Positions 8,213 through 39,136 of a DNA stretch of 64,000 bases are shown in pieces (positions within the stretch are counted from its first letter, which is position 1; the number at the start of each line of letters is the position of its first letter). Under the pieces are notes generated by a model. It made no database searches. It worked only from the letters and a program-made list of their open reading frames with translations, and was not told the DNA's origin. Source of the stretch: an uncultured Fibrobacter sp. (lineage in GTDB: Bacteria; Fibrobacterota; Fibrobacteria; Fibrobacterales; Fibrobacteraceae); contig NZ_CAMVDO010000005.1 of the NCBI RefSeq assembly GCF_947166265.1, forward strand, positions 62,001 to 126,000, written 5' to 3'. A program made the position numbers and the translations under genes.

Positions 8213-9043
8213 TCAACCTTTTATCTTGATAATACCGTTTTTAGCATTTAGAGATGTTACAACCTTTTTTCCTGTTTTCTTTTCAAGCTGAACCCTTGCG
8301 TTTTTTGCAATTTGCCCACCTTCCTTTGCGATTCGTTTATGTTCGTCCATATTTTCGGGATTTCTACTTTTAGATATTTCTGTAGTGGACAGTTCGGCCA
8401 ACATATTTATAACAAGTTCTTTGTTAGTCATATTGTCTCGCAAATTTTCTTTTTTTAGGCCCTTAAATTTGCGATATTCTTTTGCTGTTTTATTTGCCCA
8501 TGTTTTATAAATGATATCGGTCAAAGTGGCATACTGAAAATTTTGAGACACACCACCACGTTTCCATTCGTCGGTCAAATCTTTTCTAATTTCTATGGAT
8601 TTTAACCGCTGATTAATCCAATTGTCTGAATACCCCAAGCGTTTATAGTCCGCCAAAGCCTGCTTTATTGAAAGCTCGGGATCTTGCATTTGATCAATTC
8701 GCTCTTTTCCGATTTGAGCAAGCCACTGTTTGAATGGTTCTGCCTTAGGAGACGGAATAGACTGAATAATCCTTAATATACCTTTTGTATCAGCACAATT
8801 AAGCTTTTGAATTCCTCCAGCCGTTGGCACAGAAAGGGGGGTGACAATTTGTCCCCACCCTTTACCCAGTTCTTCATCACGTTTACGCATTTTCTTGATG
8901 TAGTCAGTCGGATTGGAACTTTCTGTTAATGTGGCTACTACATCAACAACAACAAAGAAGTATTCTTCAATTTGTTCATCCCAAATTGTTCGTATTTGGC
9001 TTGATTCAAAGAGTTTTATCTGCTGTATATCTTTATTGTTCAT
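8213..9043 (-). CDS. BRO-N/DinD-like protein in the hsd operon
   Basis: 276 residues from ATG 9043, chosen because AAAGAGGTG sits just upstream; the frame opens slightly earlier at a GTG. The N-terminal 100 residues (IRTIWDEQIEEYFFVVVDVV, then NPTDYIKKMRKRDEEL) fit the BRO-N fold of phage antirepressors. The C-terminal helical part with HKRIAKEGGQIAKNARVQLE resembles DinD/ARM-type companions. Such genes recur inside type I restriction loci, but a biochemical role is not established. The gene is AT-rich compared with hsdM and hsdR. Confidence 0.7.
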   Translation of the reverse strand: MNNKDIQQIKLFESSQIRTIWDEQIEEYFFVVVDVVATLTESSNPTDYIKKMRKRDEELGKGWGQIVTPLSVPTAGGIQKLNCADTKGILRIIQSIPSPKAEPFKQWLAQIGKERIDQMQDPELSIKQALADYKRLGYSDNWINQRLKSIEIRKDLTDEWKRGGVSQNFQYATLTDIIYKTWANKTAKEYRKFKGLKKENLRDNMTNKELVINMLAELSTTEISKSRNPENMDEHKRIAKEGGQIAKNARVQLEKKTGKKVVTSLNAKNGIIKIKG

Positions 9044-9082
9044 ATCGCACCTCTTTATGGTCACAATTTGTGACCTTAGACA

Positions 9083-11086
9083 TTATTTTGCCACAAAAAG
9101 CTCCAAACTCTGTGGAACACCTGCAAAATACTTACTTCTAAGAATTTCCAACAAATCAGGATTTTCATCCAGCATTTTAAACACTCGATTTCTATAGTCT
9201 TTCTCAATATCAGTCGTAAGAATTGCCACTAAGCCTTTATTGTTGAATCTTTTTACGCCCTCCGCAAAGTCTTTAGTCTCTACAATCTGTCGCAAACATG
9301 TTTTTCTTTCTTCGACAAAAGCATCTACATTTTCAAGCATTTTATCAGCCAAGTCTTTTACGCTATTCTTTAAAGTTGCTAAATCTTTAGAATTTTTCAA
9401 CATGTTTTCTTTGAAACGGTTATTTATCATTTGCACAGTGTATTCAGCACATTGGCAATCTATATGCCTTTGCAATTCTACAAATAATTTTTCTTTAGCC
9501 TTTTCAAGAGCATCTTGATCCGCATGGAAATATTCAACAGCTCGATTCAGCACATCTTCATCGCATAGAACATTTTCAATTTCCTGGACATCTAAAGAGT
9601 ATATGGAGATTTCTTTCCATGCATTCTTCTGATCTTGCTTATGGAAATCACCATCAATAATGCCTATAGCCCTATTGCCATGTACTTCATAAGAATTATT
9701 GAACGCTCTTGTATAATTTATAACCTGAAGATGCCCCTCAACAGGAATTACTGTGTAATTCGGGAAAAGCCTTGTATACAGTTTATAATCTAAACTAGCC
9801 TTCGTTCCTTCACAAAAGAGAATTGGTTTACGGCTTCCGAGAAGCCCCATATATAAAATTTCAGGCAAATCTTTATTTGTTGGAAGCGGTTCCATTTCCC
9901 ATCTATCGGGGGCAATGAATTTTTTCATCCATATTTTTTTAACATTGTTACGTGAAACGGCAAACTCAAGATTATGCGTTAGATAAATAAACTGGCAATC
10001 AGGTCTTGCATGTTCCAGCACATCCCACAATTTCGTCACCAAAGCCAAGTGCAAATGATTTTCCGGTTCATCAACAATGATATAACTGTTTTCTTTTGCC
10101 AATAGAATATGAGCTATGTAATAAAAGACAGCTTTTTCTCCATCACTTAAAAACATAAATGGATATTTGGAGCCTTCGGCTGTCACAACCCGAATATCAC
10201 CTTTTATCGCTTCTAATTTGCGATGAACAAGTATTTCATCCCAAAGTTTGATCACCTTTTCAAGTGTTGATTCCTTTCGAAAATCAACTTTGCCTTCATA
10301 ATAGTCATTTGCCAATTCATTCTTTTCTTCAAAAAGGGCTCGAACAACAGTAATTAAATCCTCTCCAATTTGATTATTATGTGGTTCACCCTTATATAAT
10401 TTGTCTTGTGCTTGATAATTCCATAGCTCTTGGCGATATTTATTGCCCAAAGACATTGTTTCAACAGGTTTAAAAGAAAATACTTTTTGCGAAGCGATAA
10501 CAACAACATTCCCTCCAAGAATTTCACGTGTTCTTCGAGAAAAGGAACTTTTCCCCGAACCATTCGCACCAACAATGACAACATTGTTTTTTAGGGACTT
10601 AAAAAGCGTAAAATTTTTCAGATGATCAAAGGCTTTTTCTAAATCATTATTTTCATACCTTAAACTTTCGTCTCTCAATCGAAGGGTCATATTCACAAAA
10701 TCATGCTGGAAAATTTCAACATCCAAGGCTTTGCGAAAAAGATCAGCATCATAGAAATTGATGACTAATGAAGATAACGAATATAATTTTATTGTGTAAA
10801 ATAATAAATCCAAATAACTCTTAGACCAATCGCAAGAATTGTCAATCTGAGATACATAAAATTTTATGCTATCATAAGAGTTACATATATTTTGCAGTCG
10901 ACGAATTAGATTTTCCAATTCTTCGTCGCAATTTTGAAAATCCGGTCGGATTCTTTTTATCCATTCGATGATTGTGTTTTTATTTGGCACAAAAATAACA
11001 TTGAGCCAACTATCTATTGTATCGCGATACCCCTTTTGCTCTCTCGCATAATCTTTTATTTGTCTAATTAAGCCTTCATTCGCCAT
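9083..11086 (-). CDS. AAA ATPase fused to DUF4435/TOPRIM-like domain (PARIS-like, single chain)
   Basis: 667 residues in three parts. A helical region of about 170 residues is followed by an ABC/OLD-type ATPase with Walker A GANGSGKSS near 175, the FLSDGEKAV signature, Walker B YIIVDEPENHLH near 340 and the switch LTHN. From about 420 comes a DUF4435-type segment with FCEGTKASLDYKLY and GIIDGDF, the Glu and DxD positions of a TOPRIM-like nuclease. AriA (ATPase) and AriB (DUF4435) make up PARIS, which responds to phage proteins that inhibit type I restriction. Here both parts are in one protein between hsdS and hsdR. GGAGGGAATGTT precedes the ATG. The domain call is solid, the PARIS-like function is inferred. 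Confidence 0.8.
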   Translation of the reverse strand: MANEGLIRQIKDYAREQKGYRDTIDSWLNVIFVPNKNTIIEWIKRIRPDFQNCDEELENLIRRLQNICNSYDSIKFYVSQIDNSCDWSKSYLDLLFYTIKLYSLSSLVINFYDADLFRKALDVEIFQHDFVNMTLRLRDESLRYENNDLEKAFDHLKNFTLFKSLKNNVVIVGANGSGKSSFSRRTREILGGNVVVIASQKVFSFKPVETMSLGNKYRQELWNYQAQDKLYKGEPHNNQIGEDLITVVRALFEEKNELANDYYEGKVDFRKESTLEKVIKLWDEILVHRKLEAIKGDIRVVTAEGSKYPFMFLSDGEKAVFYYIAHILLAKENSYIIVDEPENHLHLALVTKLWDVLEHARPDCQFIYLTHNLEFAVSRNNVKKIWMKKFIAPDRWEMEPLPTNKDLPEILYMGLLGSRKPILFCEGTKASLDYKLYTRLFPNYTVIPVEGHLQVINYTRAFNNSYEVHGNRAIGIIDGDFHKQDQKNAWKEISIYSLDVQEIENVLCDEDVLNRAVEYFHADQDALEKAKEKLFVELQRHIDCQCAEYTVQMINNRFKENMLKNSKDLATLKNSVKDLADKMLENVDAFVEERKTCLRQIVETKDFAEGVKRFNNKGLVAILTTDIEKDYRNRVFKMLDENPDLLEILRSKYFAGVPQSLELFVAK

Positions 11087-11098
11087 AACATTCCCTCC

Positions 11099-12232
11099 TT
11101 ATTTCACTCGCCATTGACCGGTGAGGAGTTTTTGCATTAAGCCTTGTTTCTGCTTTTTGTAGTTTTCGAGTTGCTGTTTGAGAAGAGAAATTTCTTCATC
11201 AAGCGATTTAAAATAGACTGCATATTTCTTTTGCTCTTCAAGACTAGGACAAAGAATGCTTTTTAGCATTAACGCAGAGAAATGTCTTTTATACCCTTCC
11301 GGAATAACAGGATTCGCTTTTATTGCATAATATATATAAGTGGGATCATAACCATCTTTCGCAGATAATATTTTTATTCCGTCCGCACCTTGCGCAAACG
11401 GCATATGCACTATTTTCAACGCACAAGTGTGGTCTCCAAAAATTATTAAAGGGCTGTTTATTTTCAGCACGCTAGATTCATCATTTGTCCACCCTGCAAT
11501 TAAATCCTTAGATTGGTCAACTATTGGATATTTACCACTATTCAAATAAGAATCTTGATGGATTTTAGATGGCGGCGTTACGCTCTTTAATATTTCTGTC
11601 AAAGGGATTTCTTTCCATTTTAACGCAATCCCTTTTCCAAGTAAGTTCTGTCTTAAAACGATGTTAAGCTCATTTTCCTTCGCATCGATGAATTTTTCCA
11701 TTTTTTCAATGGCGGAGTCCCAGACCGAAAGCGTCGCCGCAATCTTCTTCTGCTCTTCTAGCGGGGGCAAAAGGAAACTAAATGATGCTATTTGCTGGAA
11801 ATTCAAGCCTTGTCTTCCGCCGCCAACTGATAATAATTCTATTTGTTTTTGAACATCTTTTGACAAAATAAGATTACATACATAACAAGCGTCAGCGCAT
11901 TCTTTCAACCTTATTATGCAAACATGCTGATTCACATTTGCCGTTTTCACTGTTGCAGGGACAACACAAGAACGACCAATAGATGCACCTGTAATATTCA
12001 ATAAAATGTCGTTTGGATGAACCCATGTCCCTTTCATTTTACTATGCTGTTCATCTGAAATAAAGGCTACATCATTTAAATCAAGAAAACCGTTTAAAAC
12101 ATTCTGGCTTCTAATAATGGGAATACCTGCGTCAAGATAAACTTCTCTTCCGCCTTTCGGAGTAGAGCCACTACCTATCTTATTGCAGATTTCACCTAAC
12201 TTTATTTTTTTCCATCCATTAGGCAAACTCAT
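11099..12232 (-). CDS. hsdS: Type I restriction-modification specificity subunit (two target-recognition domains)
   Basis: 377 residues. The first recognition domain starts LPNGWKKIKLGEICNKIGSG with SQNVLNG and ends in LPPLEEQKKIAATLSVWDSA, the conserved start of the spacer helix. The second ends CPSLEEQKKYAVYFKSLDEE and KQGLMQKLLTGQWRVK. This two-TRD design binds a bipartite DNA target as part of HsdM2S. The ATG overlaps the stop of the zinc-ribbon gene (ATGA). It lies over 5 kb from hsdM, with seven genes between them. Confidence 0.95.
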   Translation of the reverse strand: MSLPNGWKKIKLGEICNKIGSGSTPKGGREVYLDAGIPIIRSQNVLNGFLDLNDVAFISDEQHSKMKGTWVHPNDILLNITGASIGRSCVVPATVKTANVNQHVCIIRLKECADACYVCNLILSKDVQKQIELLSVGGGRQGLNFQQIASFSFLLPPLEEQKKIAATLSVWDSAIEKMEKFIDAKENELNIVLRQNLLGKGIALKWKEIPLTEILKSVTPPSKIHQDSYLNSGKYPIVDQSKDLIAGWTNDESSVLKINSPLIIFGDHTCALKIVHMPFAQGADGIKILSAKDGYDPTYIYYAIKANPVIPEGYKRHFSALMLKSILCPSLEEQKKYAVYFKSLDEEISLLKQQLENYKKQKQGLMQKLLTGQWRVK

Positions 12233-12471
12233 TTGAACATTTTCCTTACATTCTTTTGAAACTCTTTGATTTTATCGCCCATAATTTCTTTCGCAATTTT
12301 CTCGCCTTCTTTACGAGCTAAAGACCGTAAAGAAGTATAATCGTTGCTTTGACCGCAATTTGCACATTTGATTTGCTCGTCTGGTTTCGGTTCATATCCT
12401 TCATAGGGCACATCGAAGCTAGTCGATTTGCAAAAAATACACTTTAATGGAATAGTTCTTTTCTCTTCCAT
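12229..12471 (-). CDS. Small zinc-ribbon protein in the hsd operon
   Basis: 80 residues with two CxxC pairs, CIFC (about 11-14) and CANC (about 36-39), spaced as in a zinc ribbon. A lysine-rich helical tail follows (EKIAKEIMGDKIKEFQKNV). It overlaps the hsdS start by four bases and begins seven bases after the winged-helix gene, so it is part of the same transcript. I do not recognise a named family; nucleic-acid or protein binding is likely from the fold only. Confidence 0.7.
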   Translation of the reverse strand: MEEKRTIPLKCIFCKSTSFDVPYEGYEPKPDEQIKCANCGQSNDYTSLRSLARKEGEKIAKEIMGDKIKEFQKNVRKMFK

Positions 12472-12477
12472 ACCGCC

Positions 12478-12996
12478 TCACAACAGACTAGTTAAAGCTC
12501 CGCCTGCAGTCCCTAAAATAGTATTGACAAGAGGATGTTCAATAAACTTCTTCATAAGACTTTTGGCATCGCTCTTTTCTTGTGCAGTCGCACTTGACTT
12601 ATCTATCTGTTCAAGCAAGTAGTTAAATGCATTGGAAACGTTTTGAACATTATTATTTCCTACTTGAACATTCGCATTATTTCCGTTGATGACTATGGAG
12701 TGTCCTGTTTCGCCATCGTTTTTTCGAAGCATGCAAGACCTAGCACGAGCACGACCTTCTTCGGTTAGGCGATACCCATTATTACGATTTAATGCAAATT
12801 TTTCAATCAAACCAAGAGCTACACTCTTATTGATCGCTACATTCACTTGCTCTTGCGTCAAATTTAATTCCTGACAGGTAGATTCGCCATAATAAAACAC
12901 TCGATTTTTTAATGACGGGACGCCATCTTTTTCAAGAGAACACTCCATACCAACAACAAGTTTATCGACCCATTCTTCGGATTCGTTAACTGTCAT
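12478..12996 (-). CDS. Winged-helix protein with a RHIM-like amyloid motif
   Basis: 172 residues. Residues about 36-90 look like a winged helix ending NRNNGYRLTEEGRARA. After a linker comes IVINGNNANVQVGNNNVQN, which contains VQVGNNN (110-116), matching the core (I/V)-Q-(I/V)-G-x-x-N of RIP homotypic interaction motifs. The C-terminal helices (FNYLLEQIDKSSATAQEKSD, then NTILGTAGGALTSLL) are hydrophobic at the end. Its start overlaps the preceding membrane-protein gene by four bases. Amyloid-type signalling motifs are known in bacterial defence proteins; that this one works so is inference. I know no named family for the whole protein. Confidence 0.6.
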   Translation of the reverse strand: MTVNESEEWVDKLVVGMECSLEKDGVPSLKNRVFYYGESTCQELNLTQEQVNVAINKSVALGLIEKFALNRNNGYRLTEEGRARARSCMLRKNDGETGHSIVINGNNANVQVGNNNVQNVSNAFNYLLEQIDKSSATAQEKSDAKSLMKKFIEHPLVNTILGTAGGALTSLL

Positions 12997-13502
12997 TTGT
13001 TCTTCTCCTCATCTTTTACTGTTTGGCGATTATTGAGTTCATGAGTAAATTTTGCAGATTCTAAATTATTCATAATAGACGTTTTTCGCATCGCTTCTTC
13101 ATCTTTCAAAATATCGCTATACCCAACAGGGAAATATGGGCGTTTGATATCTTCCCAACACAATTTTTTTAGGCCTAAAGATTTTGCCATCTCTTCTAGC
13201 AATCTTAAATGTTTGTCTTGTATATTCGGGTTCATCTCTTTAGGTTTATCAGTTTCATTTAAGAAATCCTTATAAGCCCTTCTTACATTTTCGTCGTTAT
13301 AAAATACGACATCAATAGAATTTAATGTGTGAACATTTTCCTTAAAATGAAGAACACCAGGAATTCTATATATCATCAGCGTTTCAAAAGCCTTCATCTT
13401 TCGATTATACGCTTCTGTTTTCTTTTGCCACCAAAGCGTAACAATCGTAGCAATCAAGCCAGATACTAAAGCGGAAACAATGACAAGAATCATTTCATCC
13501 AT
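12993..13502 (-). CDS. Membrane-anchored DUF6680-like protein
   Basis: 169 residues from ATG 13502. The ATG at 13517 is itself part of the GGAGGTG ribosome site, so the downstream Met is the start. One N-terminal transmembrane helix (ILVIVSALVSGLIATIVTLW, about 4-24) is followed by a cytosolic helical domain with HTLNSIDVVFYNDENVRRAY, a pattern I associate with DUF6680. The function is unknown. It overlaps the winged-helix gene and follows the DprA-like gene, so the membrane protein, winged-helix protein and zinc ribbon probably act as one unit. Confidence 0.65.
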   Translation of the reverse strand: MDEMILVIVSALVSGLIATIVTLWWQKKTEAYNRKMKAFETLMIYRIPGVLHFKENVHTLNSIDVVFYNDENVRRAYKDFLNETDKPKEMNPNIQDKHLRLLEEMAKSLGLKKLCWEDIKRPYFPVGYSDILKDEEAMRKTSIMNNLESAKFTHELNNRQTVKDEEKNK

Positions 13503-13528
13503 TATTTGCACCTCCATTTTTTATTTGT

Positions 13529-14527
13529 CTATTTCCCATCTCCGCCCCCAAATAAGTCTAGCGTTTCCGAATCTTTTTTCTTTTTCTTCGCACTGTACTT
13601 CGCTTGCTTTTCAGAAACATGCTGCAATGCGGGCACAGTCTTGGACAGCTCAATGATATTGTCCTCTATTTTTATGGGGATGCATCCTTTTTCTATAAGT
13701 GCTTTGTTAGCGTTTTTTTCGTCTGCACCGGGCTCGCGGATAAAAATCTTCCTACCGCGTTTCAGACCTTCCATAACGCCAGACCAAGTGCCGCCACCAT
13801 TGTTCGATTCAGCGACATAAATTTCATCGGCCATGCCGTAAATCAGTGTGTTTCTATCCATCGCCAACCAAGTGGACCAAGGCATTTTCGGGGCATACGC
13901 ACTTACCACCAAGACCTTGCCCTCCACAATTTGCTTGTAATATTGCTTGAAACCTGTCGAGAAAGTCAATATTCCTTGCGGCAATACGATTATGCTAGAG
14001 CCTTCCGCTTTGACAGCAGCATCCAATGCTTCGCGATCGACACCCTTGGCAAAGCCGCTTACAACAACCTTGCCTTCTTCGGCAACTTTTTTTGAAATTT
14101 TTTGAGTGAAGTCAATTGAAATTTCACTGGCTGCGCGGGCACCGACAACGGCTGCTGTCGGCTGGTTCAACAGAGCGATGTTCCCCTTTGCATAAAGCAA
14201 TACAGGGCAACCGTTCATTTTCAGGTTCTTCTTAAGTGTCTGCGGGAATTCTGGCGACATGGAAGGAATTAGCGAATACCCCTGATTGATTAGGTTTTCT
14301 GCCATAAAGGCGTTATTGGGCAGCTGTTCTTTTGCTCTCGAAAGGGCGTCAATATCCTTGATATCAAGACCGAGTTCGGAATTCCACTCAGATTCGTTCA
14401 GAGCAAAAAAGTCAACAACCGTCTTTTTTTGCTTATGGCACCAGCTGAGTATATTGTTTTTTACCGCCGTCTTGATTGCGGCATGGGCAAGGGCCATCCA
14501 GTAGGCATATTCGTTCAGGTTGTTCAT
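13529..14527 (-). CDS. DprA/Smf-like Rossmann-fold protein
   Basis: 332 residues. The central DprA-type Rossmann fold shows AVVGARAASEISIDF near residue 130, VVSGFAKGVDREALDAA near 160, IIVLPQGIL, and the MDRNTLIYGMADEIYVAES region. DprA loads RecA on incoming single-stranded DNA in transformation. This one is longer at the N-terminus and ends in a Lys-rich tail (AKKKKKDSETLDLFGGG). Its start overlaps the recQ-type gene stop by four bases, tying it to a RecQ-phosphoribosyltransferase fusion. Other competence genes are not seen in this window, so a defence-linked role is more likely than transformation (inference). Confidence 0.85.
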   Translation of the reverse strand: MNNLNEYAYWMALAHAAIKTAVKNNILSWCHKQKKTVVDFFALNESEWNSELGLDIKDIDALSRAKEQLPNNAFMAENLINQGYSLIPSMSPEFPQTLKKNLKMNGCPVLLYAKGNIALLNQPTAAVVGARAASEISIDFTQKISKKVAEEGKVVVSGFAKGVDREALDAAVKAEGSSIIVLPQGILTFSTGFKQYYKQIVEGKVLVVSAYAPKMPWSTWLAMDRNTLIYGMADEIYVAESNNGGGTWSGVMEGLKRGRKIFIREPGADEKNANKALIEKGCIPIKIEDNIIELSKTVPALQHVSEKQAKYSAKKKKKDSETLDLFGGGDGK

Positions 14528-16557
14528 AAATCGCCTCCAACGGTTTTAGCGATAACTACCGGGGTTATGGTTGCAGCACCTTTTTCTTTCAACATTTTTG
14601 CAATCTCGTTCAATGTCGCACCACTATCATAGATATCATCTAGCAAAAGAACGCTTTTCCCTTCGAGTATTTCGGGCGAATCGAAGTCGAACGCGTCTTC
14701 CACATTTTTTCTTTTCAAAATAGCATTCTGGGGAATCTTCTGTGCCGTTGTCTGTCTCATCTTTTTAAGATTATGGCATACGGGAACGCCCAACAAATCA
14801 CCAACTTTTATGGCAAAGTTCTTGACTAGGTCTCCCGATTCCGTCGGTGGCACATAAAGCAGCATATCTATCTTGTTGTTCATCATCTTCTTTTGGATCA
14901 TTCGTGCCATTCGCCGAACGATATCATCCGGGAAATCTCCCGCACCTTCGTATTTGCAATTATGCACCATCTGGCCTATTTCGCCATCTTCTAGGGAATA
15001 ATTAGCCAACGCAAATCCAAGCTCAAGTTTGGAGGATTTCTTCTTTGCTATTTCTGGGAAATAGTCTTGCTTGAAATCGCGTATTTTGAGCCATGTCGCT
15101 TCAGAATAGCGCTTGGGCATATAATCTGCCAGATTAGTATTATCGCAATTTTCAGAAGATACTGTTATCGTGTCGCCGAGATACCTGCGGAGATAATCCA
15201 TTCGAGAGCCAGTTGTTTCAATATAGCCCATCATAGCATCCAAGTCGATCATCTTGGATTGACGAAGTTCCTCAAAAGATTTTGTATCAAGTTCGGGAGC
15301 GTCAAACCGATATTCGTATTTACCTTTTTCATTGCGCACAGCGATCTTCTGTTCGAGTAAATCAGCAAGAATGGTCCTTACGGGTGTCTGCTTCATATTC
15401 AATTCGCGCATTACGTCCCGCTCGCCAAGGGGAGCATTTTTCAAGGCGTTTATAACGCGTCCGTAATCTGCCGTTTTGGGTTTTGCTCCGTTGATAAAAT
15501 TGAGGGGCAACATTTTGTCGTAGGGGATTCCTTCTTTGTTCACATTTTCATTGTAGAACAGAATGATATCCGACGGTTTGCCATCACGACCGGCACGACC
15601 GATTTCTTGGTAATAATGAATTGGGGACTGCGGCATCTGCGTATGGATGATAAAGCGGATATCCGGCTTGTCTATGCCCATTCCCAAAGCATTCGTTGCG
15701 ACAATAGCCTTCCAGCGGTTTTCTTTAAGCCCCTGTTCTATCCGAATCCTGTCTTCGCCCTCCAAAGAGGCGTTATACATTTCAGCATCTATTCCTACAA
15801 ACTTCAACCAGTCCGCATATACTTGCGTGTTGACGCGAGTTCCCGTATAAATAAGGCCAGAACCATCGCAATGCTGCAAGTATTCTGCAATGCGGATTTT
15901 CTTTTCGTTTTCCGATTTGACTTTAACAACAAACAGGCGAAGATTCTCTCGCAGGAGGTTGCCGCGCAAGACAGTCATGTTCTTGCCGATTTGCTCCTGG
16001 ATATCGTCCTGGACACGCTCCGTCGCTGTTGCAGTCACAGCCAACACAGGGACGTTTTCTGGCAAGATTCTAACAAGGTCAACAATACGTCGAAAATCCG
16101 GGCGAAAATCATGCCCCCATTGCGAAATGCAATGTGCCTCATCAACAACGACCATGGCCACCTTGATTTCACGGACGGTTTCTTGCCATGAGAGGTTGCC
16201 TTGGCGCTCCGGGGCGATATACAGAATCTTAATTTTCCCATTCTTCGCATCTTCAAGAATCTGCCCATTTTCTTCGGGAGTCTGGTTCGAGTTGATGCAC
16301 TTAGCGACAATCCCTTTCTCATTGAGTGAATTCACTTGGTCACGCATCAAGGCAATCAATGGGGAAAAGACAATTGTGAGGCCATCAAGTTGTGTTGCAG
16401 GGAACTGGTAACAGAGAGACTTGCCAAAGCCAGTCTTTTGAATCATCAAGACGCGTTCATTATTTAAAATTTTTTCAATCGCCGCCCACTGTGCGTCGTG
16501 AAAATGGGCGAATCCAAAGATTTCCTTTAATTTTTGCTCAGCTTCTTGACGGTTCAT
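14524..16557 (-). CDS. RecQ-family DNA helicase fused to a C-terminal phosphoribosyltransferase (ComF-like) domain
   Basis: 677 residues. RecQ motifs are QKTGFGKSLCYQFP (Walker A, about 42), VVDEAHCISQWGHDFRP (motif II, about 142), AVTATAT, ATNALGMGIDKPDIRFIIH and QEIGRAGRDG. The usual zinc/RQC region is replaced by a helical linker, and the end (about 590-677) is a type I phosphoribosyltransferase with the PRPP-binding loop LLLDDIYDSGATLNEI near 639. Such ends resemble ComFC. The fusion plus a translationally coupled DprA-like partner is a recurrent arrangement of unknown purpose. It sits inside the type I operon after the KilA-N gene. Confidence 0.92.
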   Translation of the reverse strand: MNRQEAEQKLKEIFGFAHFHDAQWAAIEKILNNERVLMIQKTGFGKSLCYQFPATQLDGLTIVFSPLIALMRDQVNSLNEKGIVAKCINSNQTPEENGQILEDAKNGKIKILYIAPERQGNLSWQETVREIKVAMVVVDEAHCISQWGHDFRPDFRRIVDLVRILPENVPVLAVTATATERVQDDIQEQIGKNMTVLRGNLLRENLRLFVVKVKSENEKKIRIAEYLQHCDGSGLIYTGTRVNTQVYADWLKFVGIDAEMYNASLEGEDRIRIEQGLKENRWKAIVATNALGMGIDKPDIRFIIHTQMPQSPIHYYQEIGRAGRDGKPSDIILFYNENVNKEGIPYDKMLPLNFINGAKPKTADYGRVINALKNAPLGERDVMRELNMKQTPVRTILADLLEQKIAVRNEKGKYEYRFDAPELDTKSFEELRQSKMIDLDAMMGYIETTGSRMDYLRRYLGDTITVSSENCDNTNLADYMPKRYSEATWLKIRDFKQDYFPEIAKKKSSKLELGFALANYSLEDGEIGQMVHNCKYEGAGDFPDDIVRRMARMIQKKMMNNKIDMLLYVPPTESGDLVKNFAIKVGDLLGVPVCHNLKKMRQTTAQKIPQNAILKRKNVEDAFDFDSPEILEGKSVLLLDDIYDSGATLNEIAKMLKEKGAATITPVVIAKTVGGDL

Positions 16558-32219: not shown

Positions 32220-35200
32220 CTACTTTACGATTTCCACTTTGCCGTTGTGCAGGTAGCGGCCTTTTACGGAGGGCTTGCCTTGGAGCACGCGGCCCTGCAT
32301 GTCGAACCAGCGGTCAGCCGTGTGGCGGTTGAAGCGGATTTCGCCCGTGCGCGTGTTGATGCTGCCGATGACGGTCGTGTGCTCGTTGCCGTTCTCGTCC
32401 TTGCTGACGATAACGACATCCATGCTTTCGGGGAGGTTGTCGATGCCTGCTGTCGCATTGCCCGATACCGCAGAGTTCGCCATCATGACACCTGCCGGGG
32501 CCGGGGCGGGCTTGTTGCTCATTTGGGGGAGTGGGCTGTATTTGATATATGCGCGGAACGGGCTGATGGACGCGTCGCTCCCGATCCTTACGAATGCACC
32601 GACACCGTATTTTCCGTCAGCTTCCGCAGCATAGCCATAGACAACCCTTGTCGGAGTCAGGTCGGGGTCGCCTGCCTGCCACTGCTTGTAGGCGAGCGTT
32701 CCCGTAAAAATCCAGTTTCCGTATCTCTGCACAATATCTTCGGCAGCCTCTTCGCTTGTCGCCTTGAGCGTCAAGGAAGTATGTTCCTGATCTTGGCAAT
32801 TGATGCCGAGCTTGGTGGAGTTCATCGAAATCATGTAAGGGTGATACGGTTGCAGTGTTATGTGCGTTTGTTCTCCGTTTTCCGTTTTTTTCCAGATGAC
32901 GCCGAAATCGACTTCATAATCTGCGGTGATGCCCTGGAATTCGATGATGGAGTCAACGCCCGTAAGGCAACTCGTATTCACCTCGAATGGGAAGGTGACG
33001 GTCGCAAAGACTTCGGGCGTAAACGACCGAGTGAACTCGACGGATGCGACCTCGATGTTTTCGGGAATATTGACGGCGGCATTGTCGGCCGTATAATCTC
33101 CGTCAATTATCGCACGAGCACCGTTTTCGTCTTCGAGAATTTGGACTGCGGCGAAATCGGTTTTCTTCGGTTCAACGGTCAGCGTTCCGCTTGCGAATGA
33201 GATATCATAGTTGTCGGCGGTCAGGCCGCTAGGAGTAATCGCGTATGTGCCTACATTGTCAAGTTTTGCGTAGTCGTAACTATACGAAAGTTCTCCGTTC
33301 AAGACACTTTCGGTTTCGCCATTGACAAAGCCGCTGTATTCAACGCCGTCGTTTGCAGGTTCATCGCCGTAAGCGATTGTCTTGTTCTTGGCGGTGATTG
33401 TCAAAGGAGCCTTGGTGATGGCAAACTCTTTCTCAACTGTTCCGCTGTAATCGCCGATGCCGGTGATAGTGGCGGTAGCTGTGCCTACGTTGATGTTGGC
33501 GGAATATGAAACCGTGTAGTCCGTGCCGAGCGTGAGTGGAGTTTCTCCATCAGTTACAGTAACTTCGGGTTCAATTGCCAAGCCTGTGTAGGTCTGGTCG
33601 GGAATGGCGGCGATGGTGATGTCTGAGTTCGTTAGCGGTTTTTTCCATGTCGCAGTGTAGGTGCGGTTTCCGTAACTGCCTTTTGCGATGGTTACGCTTG
33701 TATTTGCTGCATCGAGATCCGTTCCTGACCACCCCACAAACTTATAACCCGTCTTACTGGGATTGGTTAGCGTAAAGGTGTCTGTATCGTAGGTGTATGT
33801 CGCAGGGTTCTCTATCGCCACGCTACCGCCAGCAAGGTCGTAGTCAATGCTGTACACCATGTTGATTTTTCCGGTAAAACTAACATTATATATATCTTGT
33901 TCATAGAGATATATCGTCATATAGTTTGACGATGATATCTGCGTGCCGATGTCTGGGTTTCCATTGTTATAAGTGATATATCCTATCTTTTTCTTAAGTA
34001 ATGTAGCTGATATGTCCGCACCGTCATATATGCATAATTCAGAGTCATCATAACTATTACCATAGAATTTGACATTCCCCGCAGCCAGCAAACGGTAGCC
34101 ATTGGGCACTTGAAGCACCGTGGTGGAAGCACCATTTTTCACAGGCGAACCTCCAATATTAAACGATGTAACACCCTCTGGGATTACGCATTCTTTTACG
34201 CCATCTGGCGATATGCTGATTGTTGACAAACCGCTTGCGGTTAGGTCGTTCGTAAACTCCGGCGTTATCGTGACGTTCTTGTTGGGCACCTTGAATGTCA
34301 CCGTATTGCTACCCGAATACCAATGGTCTTCACCGATGGTTGAAAGAGTCGTACCATTATCCGTATCCGTGACGATAATGCGCTTGAGCAGATAGCCATC
34401 TGCGGGATTCACGGTCAGCGTAACGGTCTCGTTAGTCTTGGCAGATGTCTTGTCGCTTGCGATGCTACCATTATCTGCCGTTCCCACGGTGATGTTGTGC
34501 GGTGTAGCCTCGACTACCCTTACCGTCAAATCAAGTCCGTATTTTTCTTTAGCACTTTGACCATTGTATACATAAAATCTCATTAGCATCCCGTCTGCCG
34601 CACTGGCAAATAAAATGTTTTCACTATTCTGATCTATCTTTGTAATCAGTGCCGTCTCCGTCTCATCATTGCCGTCGTATGCCTTCAGCCAAGTCAAATA
34701 TTCACCAGATGCATAAAATTGTGCATCTGTCTTACCTGTTACTTCCAAAGTGTATCCCTCCGGAGCATACAGCATCAGGCGTCCGTCGGAAGGCACCAAG
34801 TTTCCATTCTTTCCTTCGCTATCATATACCTTGATGGTCTGGTCCTTGCCGAGGTAAACCGTCTTCTTTGTTCCGTCGTTGGGGAAGTTGATGTAATGGT
34901 CACTGCCATCTACCGACAAATTTGCGTCCCACTCCACGAGGCTGAATGTAACCGACTTGCTGCCCGTGTAGGTCGTTCCTGTTCCTGTAACCGTCAGCGT
35001 ATAGTCGCCCAGTTGATCAAAGGTCGAAACTTCCTCGTTGCTGCTGTTCTTGATGACAGCCGTGTAATGTGTGCCCAGTGTCAGTTTGTTGCCGTTGTAG
35101 TCATATACATCATAACTGACATCGACCGCAGTTCCGTTCGTGGTAATGTAATAGAGCGGCATCTGAATATCGGCATAAGCAAGCGAATTGTTGTCTGCCA

Positions 35201-36107
35201 CTGCCGGGACGATCTTCTGATTTAGTTTATTCGCAAGTTCATCCGCCGTGACATAGTCTGTAGTCCCATCGTAATAGAAACGCTTACCGTCCTCAAAACT
35301 GATTGTGCCTTTGTAACTGCTCGCATTGATGAAGTCCGTACTTTCGGTCCACGACAATGAGATGGTACCTAACGTGCCGTCTATTGAAGAACCTTTGCCC
35401 GGTCCAATGCCATAACCACATGGGTTACCATTATCCTTGCCACCGGTTGCATTAACCTGACCACCACTGATAGTAATTGTGCCGCCGTCACCAGGATTTT
35501 CCGAATCGCCACCGCCACCGATTCCTGCGCCTTTATAATTGCCTGTGGCACTTACAACACCACCAGTGATGGTAATCATACCAGCATTGCCCTTATAACC
35601 GCCACCAATACCTGCAGACCAACTATCGCCCGTCGCAGTGACATTTCCTCCGCTAATGTTGATAATTGTAGCAGAGCCGGAGTCGCCACCACCGATACCG
35701 GCACCACCATTTTTTCCTGTTGCATTGATGGTTCCGCCTGTAATATTGATAGTGCCACTGTTTTGTCTAAAGGTTCCTCCTATTGCGGCAAACATATTAT
35801 TGGCTCCGGCATTAAGAGTTCCATCGCCAGCAATCGTCAGACTGTTTCCTTCATTTACGGTTATGCCAAAAGATGCAGTTAGGGTAGCACCTGCACCGAG
35901 GTTCAGCGTAACATCGCCGCTGATGGTAATACGCTTGGAAAAAGTAACCTTGCCGCTGCCCGTAATATTGACTGTGCTGTTTTCCCATGTTGTAGCATCG
36001 GAAATTGTTTGACCATCAGCCACAATGGTGATTATTTCATCCGCCCATGCGGTGGAAAGCATGGAGAGAAGGAGAAGGAATGTCAAAAAAAGTGATTTGG
36101 ATTTCAT
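32220..36107 (-). CDS. Large secreted multi-repeat surface protein (beta-helix, InlB-type, MBG domains)
   Basis: 1295 residues. Signal peptide MKSKSLFLTFLLLLSMLSTAWA; a glycine-rich right-handed beta-helix-like region (about 60-240) with repeated GAGIGGG...ISGGxVxATG turns; CUB-like pieces; a bacterial repeat (TVGTADNGSIASDKTSAKTN); an InlB B-type repeat (GYKFVGWSGTDLD); YDG/MBG domains (TAKNKTIAYGDEPAND, GVEYSGFVNGE, DYTVSYSANINVGTA). The C-terminal FDMQGRVLQGKPSVKGRYLH and VEIVK resembles a type IX-like sorting tail. No catalytic motif is seen, so a surface adhesin or matrix protein is the likely role. Two tiny genes follow it. Confidence 0.88.
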   Translation of the reverse strand: MKSKSLFLTFLLLLSMLSTAWADEIITIVADGQTISDATTWENSTVNITGSGKVTFSKRITISGDVTLNLGAGATLTASFGITVNEGNSLTIAGDGTLNAGANNMFAAIGGTFRQNSGTINITGGTINATGKNGGAGIGGGDSGSATIINISGGNVTATGDSWSAGIGGGYKGNAGMITITGGVVSATGNYKGAGIGGGGDSENPGDGGTITISGGQVNATGGKDNGNPCGYGIGPGKGSSIDGTLGTISLSWTESTDFINASSYKGTISFEDGKRFYYDGTTDYVTADELANKLNQKIVPAVADNNSLAYADIQMPLYYITTNGTAVDVSYDVYDYNGNKLTLGTHYTAVIKNSSNEEVSTFDQLGDYTLTVTGTGTTYTGSKSVTFSLVEWDANLSVDGSDHYINFPNDGTKKTVYLGKDQTIKVYDSEGKNGNLVPSDGRLMLYAPEGYTLEVTGKTDAQFYASGEYLTWLKAYDGNDETETALITKIDQNSENILFASAADGMLMRFYVYNGQSAKEKYGLDLTVRVVEATPHNITVGTADNGSIASDKTSAKTNETVTLTVNPADGYLLKRIIVTDTDNGTTLSTIGEDHWYSGSNTVTFKVPNKNVTITPEFTNDLTASGLSTISISPDGVKECVIPEGVTSFNIGGSPVKNGASTTVLQVPNGYRLLAAGNVKFYGNSYDDSELCIYDGADISATLLKKKIGYITYNNGNPDIGTQISSSNYMTIYLYEQDIYNVSFTGKINMVYSIDYDLAGGSVAIENPATYTYDTDTFTLTNPSKTGYKFVGWSGTDLDAANTSVTIAKGSYGNRTYTATWKKPLTNSDITIAAIPDQTYTGLAIEPEVTVTDGETPLTLGTDYTVSYSANINVGTATATITGIGDYSGTVEKEFAITKAPLTITAKNKTIAYGDEPANDGVEYSGFVNGETESVLNGELSYSYDYAKLDNVGTYAITPSGLTADNYDISFASGTLTVEPKKTDFAAVQILEDENGARAIIDGDYTADNAAVNIPENIEVASVEFTRSFTPEVFATVTFPFEVNTSCLTGVDSIIEFQGITADYEVDFGVIWKKTENGEQTHITLQPYHPYMISMNSTKLGINCQDQEHTSLTLKATSEEAAEDIVQRYGNWIFTGTLAYKQWQAGDPDLTPTRVVYGYAAEADGKYGVGAFVRIGSDASISPFRAYIKYSPLPQMSNKPAPAPAGVMMANSAVSGNATAGIDNLPESMDVVIVSKDENGNEHTTVIGSINTRTGEIRFNRHTADRWFDMQGRVLQGKPSVKGRYLHNGKVEIVK

Positions 36108-36280: not shown

Positions 36281-36400
36281 TTACTTCTTCAGATTGTTGA
36301 TAACTTGATATCCAATGATTGACATAGAGAAATAATTGGATGTTGATGTGCTGCCATCGAAACGCATGAAGAGAAAGAAAAAGGAAACAAAGGTATTCAT
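36281..36400 (-). CDS. 39-residue small protein coupled to the GDENG-repeat gene
   Basis: From ATG 36400: MNTFVSFFFLFMRFDGSTST, SNYFSMSIIGYQVINNLKK. A GATAGAGG ribosome site overlaps the end of the upstream gene, whose stop lies only 8 bases before the ATG, so translation is probably coupled. The N-terminus is a short hydrophobic helix. It could be a membrane-associated partner of the repeat protein; no family is recognised. Confidence 0.5.
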   Translation of the reverse strand: MNTFVSFFFLFMRFDGSTSTSNYFSMSIIGYQVINNLKK

Positions 36401-36408
36401 TTTAACCT

Positions 36409-38367
36409 CTATCTTTTTTTCTTGCAAAAGAAATCGATTGCGGTTTGAACATCTATAATATCGGGAATTTCTGATTGTCCGTCATTTAGAATATTAAACA
36501 ACTGTTCTCCGATAGTATTTTTTAGTACCAACAAAGATGTACGTTGAAGATCAATTAATTCGGAAATAAAATTTCTTATGCAATCTTCAGAAAATGAATT
36601 TTTTTGCTTTGAATTAGTAATTCCGTATTTAGAGGCAATTTTATTGGAATTATCCAACCAGAACTGCTGTATATGTTTGAGTTTTGTATAATCAAAATTA
36701 ATAGAATATTCTGATAACAATTCTTGTACTGATTCTTGCAAATATTTAATTTGGCTTTTTTTAACTACGCTTTTTTGGTCATTAATATTGCGCATTGCAG
36801 GTACAACGGTGTTGTTGAACCAATCAGAATATCGTCTGCCCAATTTTCCATAGAAAAAGCATGAAAGTCCGTATGCCTTAGGATGATCGCCTTTTATAAT
36901 GAGGGTTCCACTTACTGGATATATAAAGCGGTTTGCGGCCTGATGGCATACTCCATCAAGAGCGTATGTCATGTTCGTGAAATCATTTTTCCCACGGCAT
37001 TGATCCATTATTGAATAGGCATCGCCATCAACATTTGCTATTTGAACAATATCATCGCCTTCTGTAGAACCGTTACAGCAAAATACACCTTTAGGATTTA
37101 CACTTTCAACCCATACGTGATCCATTACTTTTTTAAATTTTTCCGAGAAAGCAGGGGAATAATGTACTTTGAACTGATTTGCAAAAGATACCTTATCTAT
37201 GTAAAAATCGGATTTGCTTTCTTTTTGTTCCAATATTTGTGTATCTGTAAGTTCAAGTGGAATGGCTTCAAACCCTTCTTCTATTTTACCATCTTTGACT
37301 TTGGGTGCCATAAGGTATAATTTTGCAAATCGTGTTATTGTTGGGGCGTTTTCATCACCATTGTGTTTACGACCAATTATGACGTAGCCTTCTTTTTCAA
37401 CCCAACAACCATTGGATTCTTTTTCTGTGTAAACGTCAACTATATCAATGGCACAGCTCAGAGGTGCAGCTCGTCCATCTTTTTTTGCCCATACTTCAGC
37501 AAAATAGTATCCTGTGTCTTTATTTTCATCTCCATTATGGAATCTGCGTGTAATGACTTGTGCTGGTTTCGTTTTTAAAATAAAATCGGAAGCAGATTCT
37601 TTTTGTGAAAGAAAACTTGCATTTGCTAACCAAACTTCATCATAGCCTAAATCCTTAGCACGTTGTGGTAATGTAATTGCAGCGAATTTTACTTGAGTTG
37701 TTCCGTTTTCATCACCACTATGACAACGCCCAATCATACAATACCGAGGCATATATTCGGGAACGTCGGACGAATACATGGCAAACATCGTAGTTGTATC
37801 TCCATTTTCGTCTCCTTCATGAGTCCTTCCAATTATTGGCAGATAAAGTGTTATTTCGTTACCATTGGGGTCTATGCAATTTTCAATGGGGTACTGCACT
37901 ATTTCGCCAGAACTTTCTTTTACTGTTTGATGTTCATTTTTTATAATGTTAAAATCCAAAGACGTGTCTTTGTACTGAATATTTATTTTTTTTGATATTA
38001 TTGTACTTTTCCCATTTTCATCCCCTTTGTGGATTCTTCCAGTCATGACATAATCAGATGCAGCAATCCAGTCACTGCGACTTTCTTTTTCAAATTCGGT
38101 ACTGGTTTTATCTGTTAGGGATAATTTAAAATCACTTGTAATTTCGTTACCTTTGTAAGCAGAAATAATTTTTCTATTTTCCGCATCTACAAGAACGATT
38201 TCACCCCATTTATAAGTTGTATTTCCATTTTCATCCCCATTATGAATTCTGCAATAAATAGCTTCACGTTCGCCAGAACAATCGATTGTTCCATCCCCAT
38301 GTTTGGCCGATTCTTGAAAAGTTTCTTCGTTTTCAGGAACAATTGCTATAAAATAATTTTTTTCCAT
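36409..38367 (-). CDS. Six-fold GDENG-repeat protein with a Cys-His C-terminal domain, unknown family
   Basis: 652 residues, AT-rich, no signal peptide; AGAAGGAAA precedes the ATG. Six copies of a module about 60-70 residues long carry (G)R-x-H-x-G-D-E-N-(G), at RIHNGDENGN, RIHKGDENGK, RTHEGDENGD, RCHSGDENGT, RFHNGDENKD and RKHNGDENAP, several followed by a KESxSDF linker. After about residue 410 comes a non-repetitive domain with VFCCNGSTEGDD, DGVCHQAANRFIYPVSG and GLSCFFYGKLGRRYSDWFNN, then helices. The VCHQ...N segment looks like a possible Cys-His active site. The His-Gly-Asp-Glu-Asn repeats may bind metal. I know no such family; both ideas are inference. Confidence 0.8.
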   Translation of the reverse strand: MEKNYFIAIVPENEETFQESAKHGDGTIDCSGEREAIYCRIHNGDENGNTTYKWGEIVLVDAENRKIISAYKGNEITSDFKLSLTDKTSTEFEKESRSDWIAASDYVMTGRIHKGDENGKSTIISKKINIQYKDTSLDFNIIKNEHQTVKESSGEIVQYPIENCIDPNGNEITLYLPIIGRTHEGDENGDTTTMFAMYSSDVPEYMPRYCMIGRCHSGDENGTTQVKFAAITLPQRAKDLGYDEVWLANASFLSQKESASDFILKTKPAQVITRRFHNGDENKDTGYYFAEVWAKKDGRAAPLSCAIDIVDVYTEKESNGCWVEKEGYVIIGRKHNGDENAPTITRFAKLYLMAPKVKDGKIEEGFEAIPLELTDTQILEQKESKSDFYIDKVSFANQFKVHYSPAFSEKFKKVMDHVWVESVNPKGVFCCNGSTEGDDIVQIANVDGDAYSIMDQCRGKNDFTNMTYALDGVCHQAANRFIYPVSGTLIIKGDHPKAYGLSCFFYGKLGRRYSDWFNNTVVPAMRNINDQKSVVKKSQIKYLQESVQELLSEYSINFDYTKLKHIQQFWLDNSNKIASKYGITNSKQKNSFSEDCIRNFISELIDLQRTSLLVLKNTIGEQLFNILNDGQSEIPDIIDVQTAIDFFCKKKR

Positions 38368-38390
38368 ATTTTTTCCTTCTTATGGTTTAA

Positions 38391-38640
38391 ACGCCAAAAA
38401 CACCAAACAGCGTAACCGTCTGGTGTTGACTTTTAGTTTGTATTTTGAAAATTTTAGTTCTTAGTGAACATTTGTGCCCCCCCCCCACCCTTGCAAAATT
38501 CGTGCCTAGCGACGCAGGGGCGAGGTCCGCCAAAGTCAAGGCAGACATACTGTCGAGGTCAAAGCACCGTGGGTAGTCAGGGGCCATCAAAAGCATATGA
38601 AAAAGTTACAAAAATTTGGAGTGGGTGTCAAAAGGGGGCT
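38391..38640 (-). other. Gene-free conserved-looking segment with terminator-like end
   Basis: Minus-strand AACACCAGACGG...TGGTGTTTTTG (38426-38391) forms a hairpin with a T-run just upstream of the GDENG gene. Between it and 38640 lie a C-run near 38481 and a frame reading LTLADLAPASLGTNFARVGG that I do not accept as coding. The block may be a small RNA or a dispersed repeat. Confidence 0.3.
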
Positions 38641-38650
38641 TTTTTAGTGC

Positions 38651-39136
38651 TTATTTCTTCTCTAAGATTTCCCAATGTCCACCGAAATCTCCGCCGTTTC
38701 GCTTGATTATCCCCTGTTTCTTCAGTTTGTTGATGTGTTTCTGGACTGCAGAAGGGGCTATTCCCATGAATTCGGAAAGTTTTATTCGGGTGATGTAAGG
38801 GTCATTTATTATCGCTTGCAACACAACTGCCGTGCGGTCCGTATCATTTGTCTGACCACCTGTCAGACCACCCTTGCCATCTTCATTGTTGTCGTTAGAT
38901 TTTTCGTTATGGGATGATATCAAGGTGGCTTTCAGCATGAAATCACATTGTCTGTATTCGGGGGCAGGATTGCCTGCAGCCTCCATTTCTCGAAACATTC
39001 TATCGACACCTTCGCCAAATTCCTTGACTAATTCATAATCGTGCATGAATTGTGCGATTTTGGGGTTTCGCGAAAAGTGGATTTGGCGGATGTTGTTTAG
39101 GCGGACCATTCCCGGCAAAATGCCACTACAATTCAT
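38651..39136 (-). pseudogene. 5'-truncated AlbA-type ATP-binding/winged-helix regulator
   Basis: The 161-residue frame begins at the end of the GHKL-type ATPase part (LPGMVRLNNIRQIHFSRNPK, YELVKEFGEGVDRMFREME), continues through an acidic linker (EDGKGGLTGGQTNDTDRT) and ends with a complete winged helix (TRIKLSEFMGIAPSAVQKHI, GHWEILEKK). Family members have 400-550 residues with an N-terminal AlbA_2 domain, so about 300 residues are missing. The break coincides with the stop of the phosphatase gene at 39126, pointing to a deletion or insertion at that point. Confidence 0.75.

What the first reader, a model, noticed from the sequence alone, without database searches (positions are those of the whole stretch)
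36281..38367. GDENG-repeat protein with Cys-His domain and a coupled 39-residue gene
Six R-x-H-x-G-D-E-N modules followed by a domain with DGVCHQAAN. AT-rich, no signal peptide, strong ribosome site, and a small hydrophobic partner 8 bases after the stop. I cannot place it in any family. It could be a metal-binding scaffold tied to a Cys-dependent hydrolase, possibly a toxin or defence effector.
Basis: partly seen in the sequence, partly recalled or inferred. Interest (0 to 1): 0.72.

Follow-up and report, generated by a model that had tools for sequence, protein, structure and literature searches.

The report
Unnamed repeat-armed cysteine enzyme family
The gene makes a horizontally acquired protein that joins six copies of a new binding-type repeat to a probable cysteine enzyme of a widespread but unnamed bacterial family, most likely an effector-like hydrolase or acyltransferase; the tiny second gene reported next to it is not supported.

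Summary
In detail: a 652-aa ORF (36409-38367, minus) has six R-x-H-x-GDEN modules, a DGVCHQAAN domain, a good ribosome site and 35% GC. No profile in Pfam, NCBIfam, PADLOC or PHROGs recognises it.

It is not an orphan. The Cys-His domain plus helical tail is a family found here in 80 loci from many bacterial phyla, an archaeal contig, conjugative plasmids and a phage. His417, Tyr468 and GVCHQxAN are invariant in 70 aligned members. His417 and GVCHQxAN are kept in all 11 hits of a profile search that demanded no motif. The predicted fold puts His on a strand and Cys at a helix start, His first. Its best solved match is DeSI-1 (Z 6.2, next 2.7), a permuted papain-like hydrolase.

Modules vary between members: GDENG repeats here and in a Clostridiales protein (36% identical), a lectin propeller in Clostridium senegalense, other repeats in a second species of the window's genus. 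The GDENG repeat also occurs in a Pseudomonas plasmid protein and a crAss-like phage protein.

The 39-aa ORF has no convincing match in 79 other genomes of its genus. One branch instead has a real downstream partner, homologous to the enzyme's own tail.

Best reading: a horizontally acquired, modular, permuted papain-like hydrolase or acyltransferase. The substrate and the effector role are inferred.

The parts
36409..38367 (-). CDS, 652 aa: six GDENG repeats + Cys-His domain + helical tail
   Evidence: colinear 36%-identical homologue L009
38374..38380 (-). ribosome-binding site AGAAGGA, just before ATG
38182..38292 (-). GDENG repeat 1 (aa 26-62)
37969..38094 (-). GDENG repeat 2 (aa 92-133)
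37765..37890 (-). GDENG repeat 3 (aa 160-201)
37660..37770 (-). GDENG repeat 4 (aa 200-236)
37477..37605 (-). GDENG repeat 5 (aa 255-297)
   Evidence: modelled as strand - GDEN turn - strand, low confidence
37303..37428 (-). GDENG repeat 6 (aa 314-355)
36826..37188 (-). Cys-His domain (about aa 394-514), putative permuted papain-like hydrolase
37117..37119 (-). codon of His417, predicted catalytic base (DH motif)
   Evidence: invariant 70/70 and in 11/11 profile-only hits
36946..36948 (-). codon of Cys474, predicted nucleophile at a helix N-terminus (GVCHQ motif)
   Evidence: invariant 70/70, 11/11 profile-only hits; first residue of helix H90-102 in the model
36412..36825 (-). helical tail domain (aa 515-652), homologous to free-standing partner proteins elsewhere in the family
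38388..38435 (-). hairpin between the upstream gene and the RBS (terminator- or operator-like)
   Evidence: fold z-score -3.6; no Rfam match
36281..36400 (-). 39-aa ORF reported as a coupled gene; probably not a gene
   Evidence: no convincing match in 79 other genomes of the genus

Best explanation
A horizontally acquired, modular enzyme. The C-terminal half (Cys-His domain plus helical tail) belongs to an unnamed, cross-phylum family that most likely has a circularly permuted papain-like fold: His417 on a core strand activates Cys474 at the start of the core helix, and the enzyme cleaves or transfers an acyl or amide group through a Cys thioester. The six GDENG beta-hairpin repeats are an interchangeable binding module that brings the enzyme to its target; lectin propellers and other repeats are found fused to the domain in relatives. 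The most likely role is an effector-type enzyme acting on another cell or on a surface component. Shown: gene, repeats, homology, conservation of Cys and His, module swapping, sporadic and foreign character. Predicted: fold and dyad. Inferred: binding by the repeats, substrate, effector role and route of export.
For: Family of 80 loci across phyla, plus two viral contigs and rhizobial plasmids. H417, Y468, GVCHQxAN, S502 and G510 invariant in 70 members; C431 too. In profile-only hits, where no motif was demanded, H and GVCHQxAN are kept in 11/11. AF2 model pLDDT 87, pTM 0.86, with H417 on a strand and C474 opening a helix. Second model: Z 6.2 to DeSI-1 (2wp7), 105 residues, 3.9 A, over the whole Cys-His domain, next match Z 2.7. 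First model: top row an H-NC-type viral 2A protein, Z 3.5, 97 of 111 residues. Module swapping: GDENG here and in L009, DUF346/fucose-lectin propeller in L036, other repeats in P0003. GDENG repeats also in a plasmid protein and a phage protein with BACON. Horizontal transfer: GC3 25% against 54-62%, 1 of 80 genomes in the genus, Clostridiales sister with support 0.97, a family copy next to the terminase genes of a phage.
Against: No significant Foldseek hit, and Z 6.2 is below 8, where chance arrangements occur. No profile match to LRAT or to any Pfam family in 70 members. No activity is known. No secretion-system genes recur among neighbours and no signal peptide is visible here, so export is unproven. 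The repeat part of the model has low confidence. GVCHQ[LAM]AN was one of the search patterns, so its invariance in that set is partly by construction.
Confidence: 0.55

Rival explanations
1. The same permuted papain-like enzyme, but working inside its own cell (deconjugating peptidase, amidase or acyltransferase on the cell's own proteins or lipids), with the repeats as an intracellular scaffold; not an effector.
For: No signal peptide in this protein or in most members seen; the best solved match, DeSI-1, is an intracellular deconjugating protease (PMC10318531). No recurrent secretion or immunity genes among 85 neighbours.
Against: Sporadic distribution (2 of 111 genomes in the family; 8 of 299 and 2 of 345 elsewhere), foreign composition, lectin fusion, and presence on conjugative plasmids and in a phage do not look like housekeeping. 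Some members appear to carry signal peptides (L081, L136).
Confidence: 0.25
2. The conserved His417, Cys431, Cys474 and His475 form a metal (for example zinc) site or a disulfide, and the domain is a binding or structural module without catalysis.
For: Two Cys and two His are invariant in 70 members, a set that could bind zinc.
Against: L136 has no Cys at the Cys431 position but keeps His417 and GVCHQ. The invariant Tyr468, the Cys at a helix start and the match to DeSI-1 are expected of an enzyme.
Confidence: 0.15
3. The 39-aa ORF is a real coupled partner (immunity or membrane anchor).
For: It starts 8 nt after the stop. In one branch of the family at least 17 of 25 members have a conserved downstream partner, mostly within 45 nt.
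Against: No convincing match in 79 genomes of the genus. The true partners elsewhere are about 115-150 aa, soluble-looking and homologous to the enzyme tail; the 39-aa ORF is nothing like them. L009 is followed by an unrelated P-II-like ORF.
Confidence: 0.05

Closest known systems
PPPDE / peptidase C97, DeSI-1 (PDB 2wp7, PF05903)
   Same: His before Cys in sequence, Cys at the start of the core helix, overall fold similarity Z 6.2 over 105 residues; PPPDE1 also lacks the usual third catalytic residue (PMC3142127)
   Different: No detectable sequence similarity; different motif (GVCHQxAN); bacterial; fused to repeats or lectins and a helical tail
LRAT / H-NC proteins (PF04970; Aichivirus 2A, 7zv1)
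   Same: Order H then C; C-x4-N spacing in NCEHFVN and VCHQAAN; weak fold similarity Z 3.5
   Different: No profile match; the second His of LRAT seems to correspond by position to Cys431 here
Tox-Act1 / TseH permuted NlpC/P60 phospholipase effectors (PMC12994826)
   Same: Permuted Cys-His core used as an antibacterial effector enzyme; a model for how this could act
   Different: Here no T6SS context seen, no sequence match; substrate unknown
Marasmius oreades agglutinin (PMC4764322)
   Same: Binding (lectin) module joined to a papain-like Cys-His domain, as in the Clostridium senegalense relative L036 with its lectin propeller
   Different: Cys precedes His in MOA (Cys215, His257); beta-trefoil lectin; fungal; no sequence match

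Membership tests
Permuted papain-like (NlpC/P60-related) Cys hydrolases | Catalytic His precedes catalytic Cys in the sequence, both invariant | tested here: met
   H417 and C474 in 70/70 aligned members and 11/11 profile-only hits
Permuted papain-like (NlpC/P60-related) Cys hydrolases | His on a core strand, Cys at the N-terminus of the core helix | tested here: met
   In the AF2 model only: H417 in strand 32-38, C474 first residue of helix 90-102
Permuted papain-like (NlpC/P60-related) Cys hydrolases | Papain-like core fold | tested here: inconclusive
   Z 6.2 to DeSI-1, well above the next row but below 8; no significant Foldseek hit
Permuted papain-like (NlpC/P60-related) Cys hydrolases | Third polar residue orienting the His | tested here: inconclusive
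   C431 is 70/70 in A4 but lost in L136; distances not available. LRAT mutagenesis and PPPDE1 suggest it can be dispensable (PMC3142127)
Permuted papain-like (NlpC/P60-related) Cys hydrolases | Conserved active-site tyrosine | tested here: inconclusive
   Y468 invariant, six residues before the Cys; its place in space could not be measured
LRAT (PF04970) | Profile match / NCEHF motif | tested here: not met
   No Pfam hit in 70 members; hhalign probability under 1%
PPPDE (PF05903) | Profile match | tested here: not met
   No Pfam hit in 70 members at E 0.01
T6SS effectors such as Tox-Act1/TseH | Linkage to secretion-system and immunity genes | tested here: inconclusive
   No recurring secretion family among 85 neighbours in Pfam; secretion by distant loci not excluded
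Known anti-phage defence proteins | PADLOC profile match | tested here: not met
   0 families
Any of the above | Enzymatic activity dependent on Cys/His | not testable with these tools
   needs experiment

The most novel reading that the evidence does not exclude
A new cross-phylum family of mobile effector enzymes (H...GVCHQxAN) with swappable recognition modules (GDENG repeats, lectin propellers and others), in which a duplicated copy of the enzyme's own tail, encoded by the next gene in one large branch, acts in trans as immunity or activity regulator.
Probability: 0.25. Interest if true: 0.75.

Novelty: new variant of a known kind. Interest (0 to 1): 0.55.

Why it matters
A family with an invariant Cys-His pair, present in many phyla, on plasmids and in a phage, has no profile in the four protein-family libraries searched. 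If it is a permuted papain-like enzyme, its substrate (lipid, lipoprotein or peptide) and its tail-derived partner are directly testable, and it would add a new branch to a superfamily that includes phospholipase effectors and deconjugating enzymes. The GDENG repeat, shared with a crAss-like phage protein and a plasmid protein, is a second unnamed module whose ligand can be sought.

Tried and rejected
Whole-protein searches in genome contigs and viral contigs gave nothing; only the domain alignment reached relatives. phmmer and hmmsearch against PDB sequences: no relevant hit; the tail matches only helical designs, cohesin and the like. Foldseek against PDB and BFVD: no significant hit. hhalign against a small LRAT profile: nothing. 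The repeat alignment in viral contigs: 22 pattern matches, none confirmed. The order of L009's genome: one decayed copy only, G518. Text searches for GDENG and GVCHQ: nothing useful. Adding the protein's own repeats as extra rows misaligned them onto the GVCHQ region, so they were dropped. Weak Pfam/NCBIfam hits (SPARC, OXA beta-lactamase) are far below cut-offs and fall mostly in the helical tail; rejected. The 39-aa ORF as partner: rejected.

Full report
1. The observation. The ORF at 36409-38367 (minus strand, 652 aa, ATG) is real. Six R-x-H-x-G-D-E-N modules lie at aa 44, 115, 185, 218, 279 and 337 (position of GDEN), and DGVCHQAAN at aa 471-479. A ribosome site AGAAGGA stands just before the ATG. 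GC is 34.9% and GC3 25%, against 49-56% and 54-62% in flanking genes. The 39-aa ORF at 36281-36400 exists, but its best match in 79 other genomes of the genus is E = 0.05 over 24 residues; I treat it as not a gene.

2. No named family. Pfam, NCBIfam, PADLOC and PHROGs give only sub-threshold noise, and phmmer finds nothing in PDB. Of 111 genomes of the window's family only two carry the Cys-His domain: the window's own and G060 of the same genus. G060 has a 625-aa protein with quite different N-terminal repeats (P0003). In 168 genomes of the phylum the GDENG repeat occurs only in the window's protein.

3. A hidden family. tblastn gave weak matches of the Cys-His domain to proteins of about 286 aa on conjugative rhizobial plasmids. 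An alignment of four domains then found 93 relatives, 80 kept, in genome contigs of many bacterial phyla and an archaeal contig, and two in viral contigs. One of these lies between a DNA invertase and the terminase, portal and scaffold genes of a phage (L089). None of 70 members matches Pfam at E 0.01. The alignments of 60 and 70 rows show H417, C431, Y468, G472-V473-C474-H475-Q476-x-A478-N479, S502 and G510 invariant. GVCHQ[LAM]AN was one of the search patterns, so part of this is by construction. His417, Cys431 and Ser502 were not in the pattern. In searches with the profile alone His and GVCHQxAN are kept in all 11 hits, while Cys431 is lost in one (L136). That supports His417 and Cys474 as the essential pair.

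4. Full-length homologue. L009, a Clostridiales metagenome-assembled genome, has three GDENG repeats, the domain and the tail, colinear and 36% identical. It is sister to the window's protein with support 0.97, while the G060 protein falls elsewhere in the tree. So the genus probably acquired such genes at least twice. A search of 392 genomes of L009's order found only a decayed copy.

5. Fold. AlphaFold2 of aa 385-652 with 70 rows gives pLDDT 87 and pTM 0.86: strands, then His417 on a strand, then Cys474 as the first residue of a helix, then a helical tail. Foldseek finds nothing significant. The second look ranks Aichivirus 2A first (Z 3.5, 97 of 111 residues, 3.4 A), with other papain-like enzymes, NcmC and a MARTX RID domain, among the rows. 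A second model of aa 247-532 (mean pLDDT 69, about 75-95 over the Cys-His domain) gives Z 6.2 to DeSI-1 (2wp7; 105 residues, 3.9 A) over exactly the Cys-His domain, with the next row at 2.7. Z below 8 is not proof. But both models lead to permuted papain-like enzymes, as I had predicted independently from the order His-then-Cys. PMC3142127 gives the marks of this group: permuted Cys and His, a polar third residue that is not always essential, and a conserved tyrosine. PMC10318531 classes LRAT, C92 and C97 (DeSI-1) together as permuted. A profile comparison with LRAT found no similarity, so this is not an LRAT member.

6. Repeats. A profile of the nine repeats from the window and L009 finds three copies in a hypothetical protein of the P. 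putida plasmid pW2 (E 3e-26) and one clear plus two weak copies in a BACON-domain carbohydrate-binding protein of the crAss-like phage csAssE-Sib (E 2e-8). The phage context and the DUF346/fucose-lectin propeller fused to the domain in Clostridium senegalense (L036, E 4e-29 and 3e-8) suggest that the modules fused to this enzyme are binding modules. The model shows strand, GDEN turn, strand at low confidence. Metal binding is untested.

7. Tail and partner. In 17 of 25 members of one branch (proteins starting MGTL or similar) a conserved ORF of about 115-150 aa follows, mostly between a 4-nt overlap and 45 nt away. It is homologous to the enzyme's own tail (hhalign 97%, E 8e-11, 132 columns). 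Reversed and 40 shuffled controls score at most 14.4 against 65.5, and tails from loci without a partner give the same result. No such partner was seen next to the window gene. A tail copy acting in trans as immunity or regulator is an inference.

8. Mechanism and role. Most likely the protein is a modular enzyme: repeats bind, Cys474 activated by His417 attacks an acyl or amide bond, the tail docks or regulates. Relatives of this fold act on lipids or on protein conjugates; Tox-Act1 (PMC12994826) shows that a permuted core can serve as an antibacterial phospholipase, and Marasmius oreades agglutinin (PMC4764322) that a lectin can be joined to a papain-like enzyme. An effector role fits the sporadic, foreign and mobile character, but no secretion system or signal peptide was found here, and an intracellular role remains a serious rival.

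9. Novelty. The family and the repeat are absent from the libraries searched, and the two sequence motifs gave nothing useful in 5.39 million open papers. I rate it a new variant of a known kind: probably a new family of permuted papain-like enzymes.

Noticed in passing
window 8213-16557 (-): AT-rich cluster with BRO-N, an AAA/DUF4435 ATPase, a type I restriction specificity protein, DUF6680, DprA and a DEAD helicase with a ComF-like domain: part looks like a restriction/defence island.
   Followed up: partly
window 38651-39136 (-): Fragment of a RecG-like HATPase_c_4 plus winged-helix regulator overlapping the 3' end of an acid phosphatase gene; may mark the edge of the inserted segment.
   Followed up: no
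window 38388-38435 (-) and about 38479-38489: Stable hairpin just upstream of the ribosome site (z -3.6, no Rfam match) and a run of about ten C further upstream, possibly a terminator/operator and a slippage-prone tract.
   Followed up: partly
window 32220-36107 (-): 1295-aa secreted-looking protein with MBG_2, beta-helix and List_Bact repeats directly downstream.
   Followed up: no
L018:6856-7227 and 17 similar ORFs: Unnamed ORF of about 115-150 aa after one branch of the Cys-His genes, homologous to their own tail domain.
   Followed up: yes
L002:307-2184 and L002:2494-3078: Second species of the genus has the Cys-His domain behind a different repeat (weakly phrog_4434), with a nearby opposite-strand ORF of similar repeat style.
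   Followed up: no
L008:5977-6429: GDENG repeats at the C-terminus of a BACON-domain protein in a crAss-like phage, next to a gene annotated as cellulase.
   Followed up: partly
L005:5739-6522: Rhizobium plasmid copy of the Cys-His gene annotated as two adjacent hypothetical proteins, apparently split.
   Followed up: no
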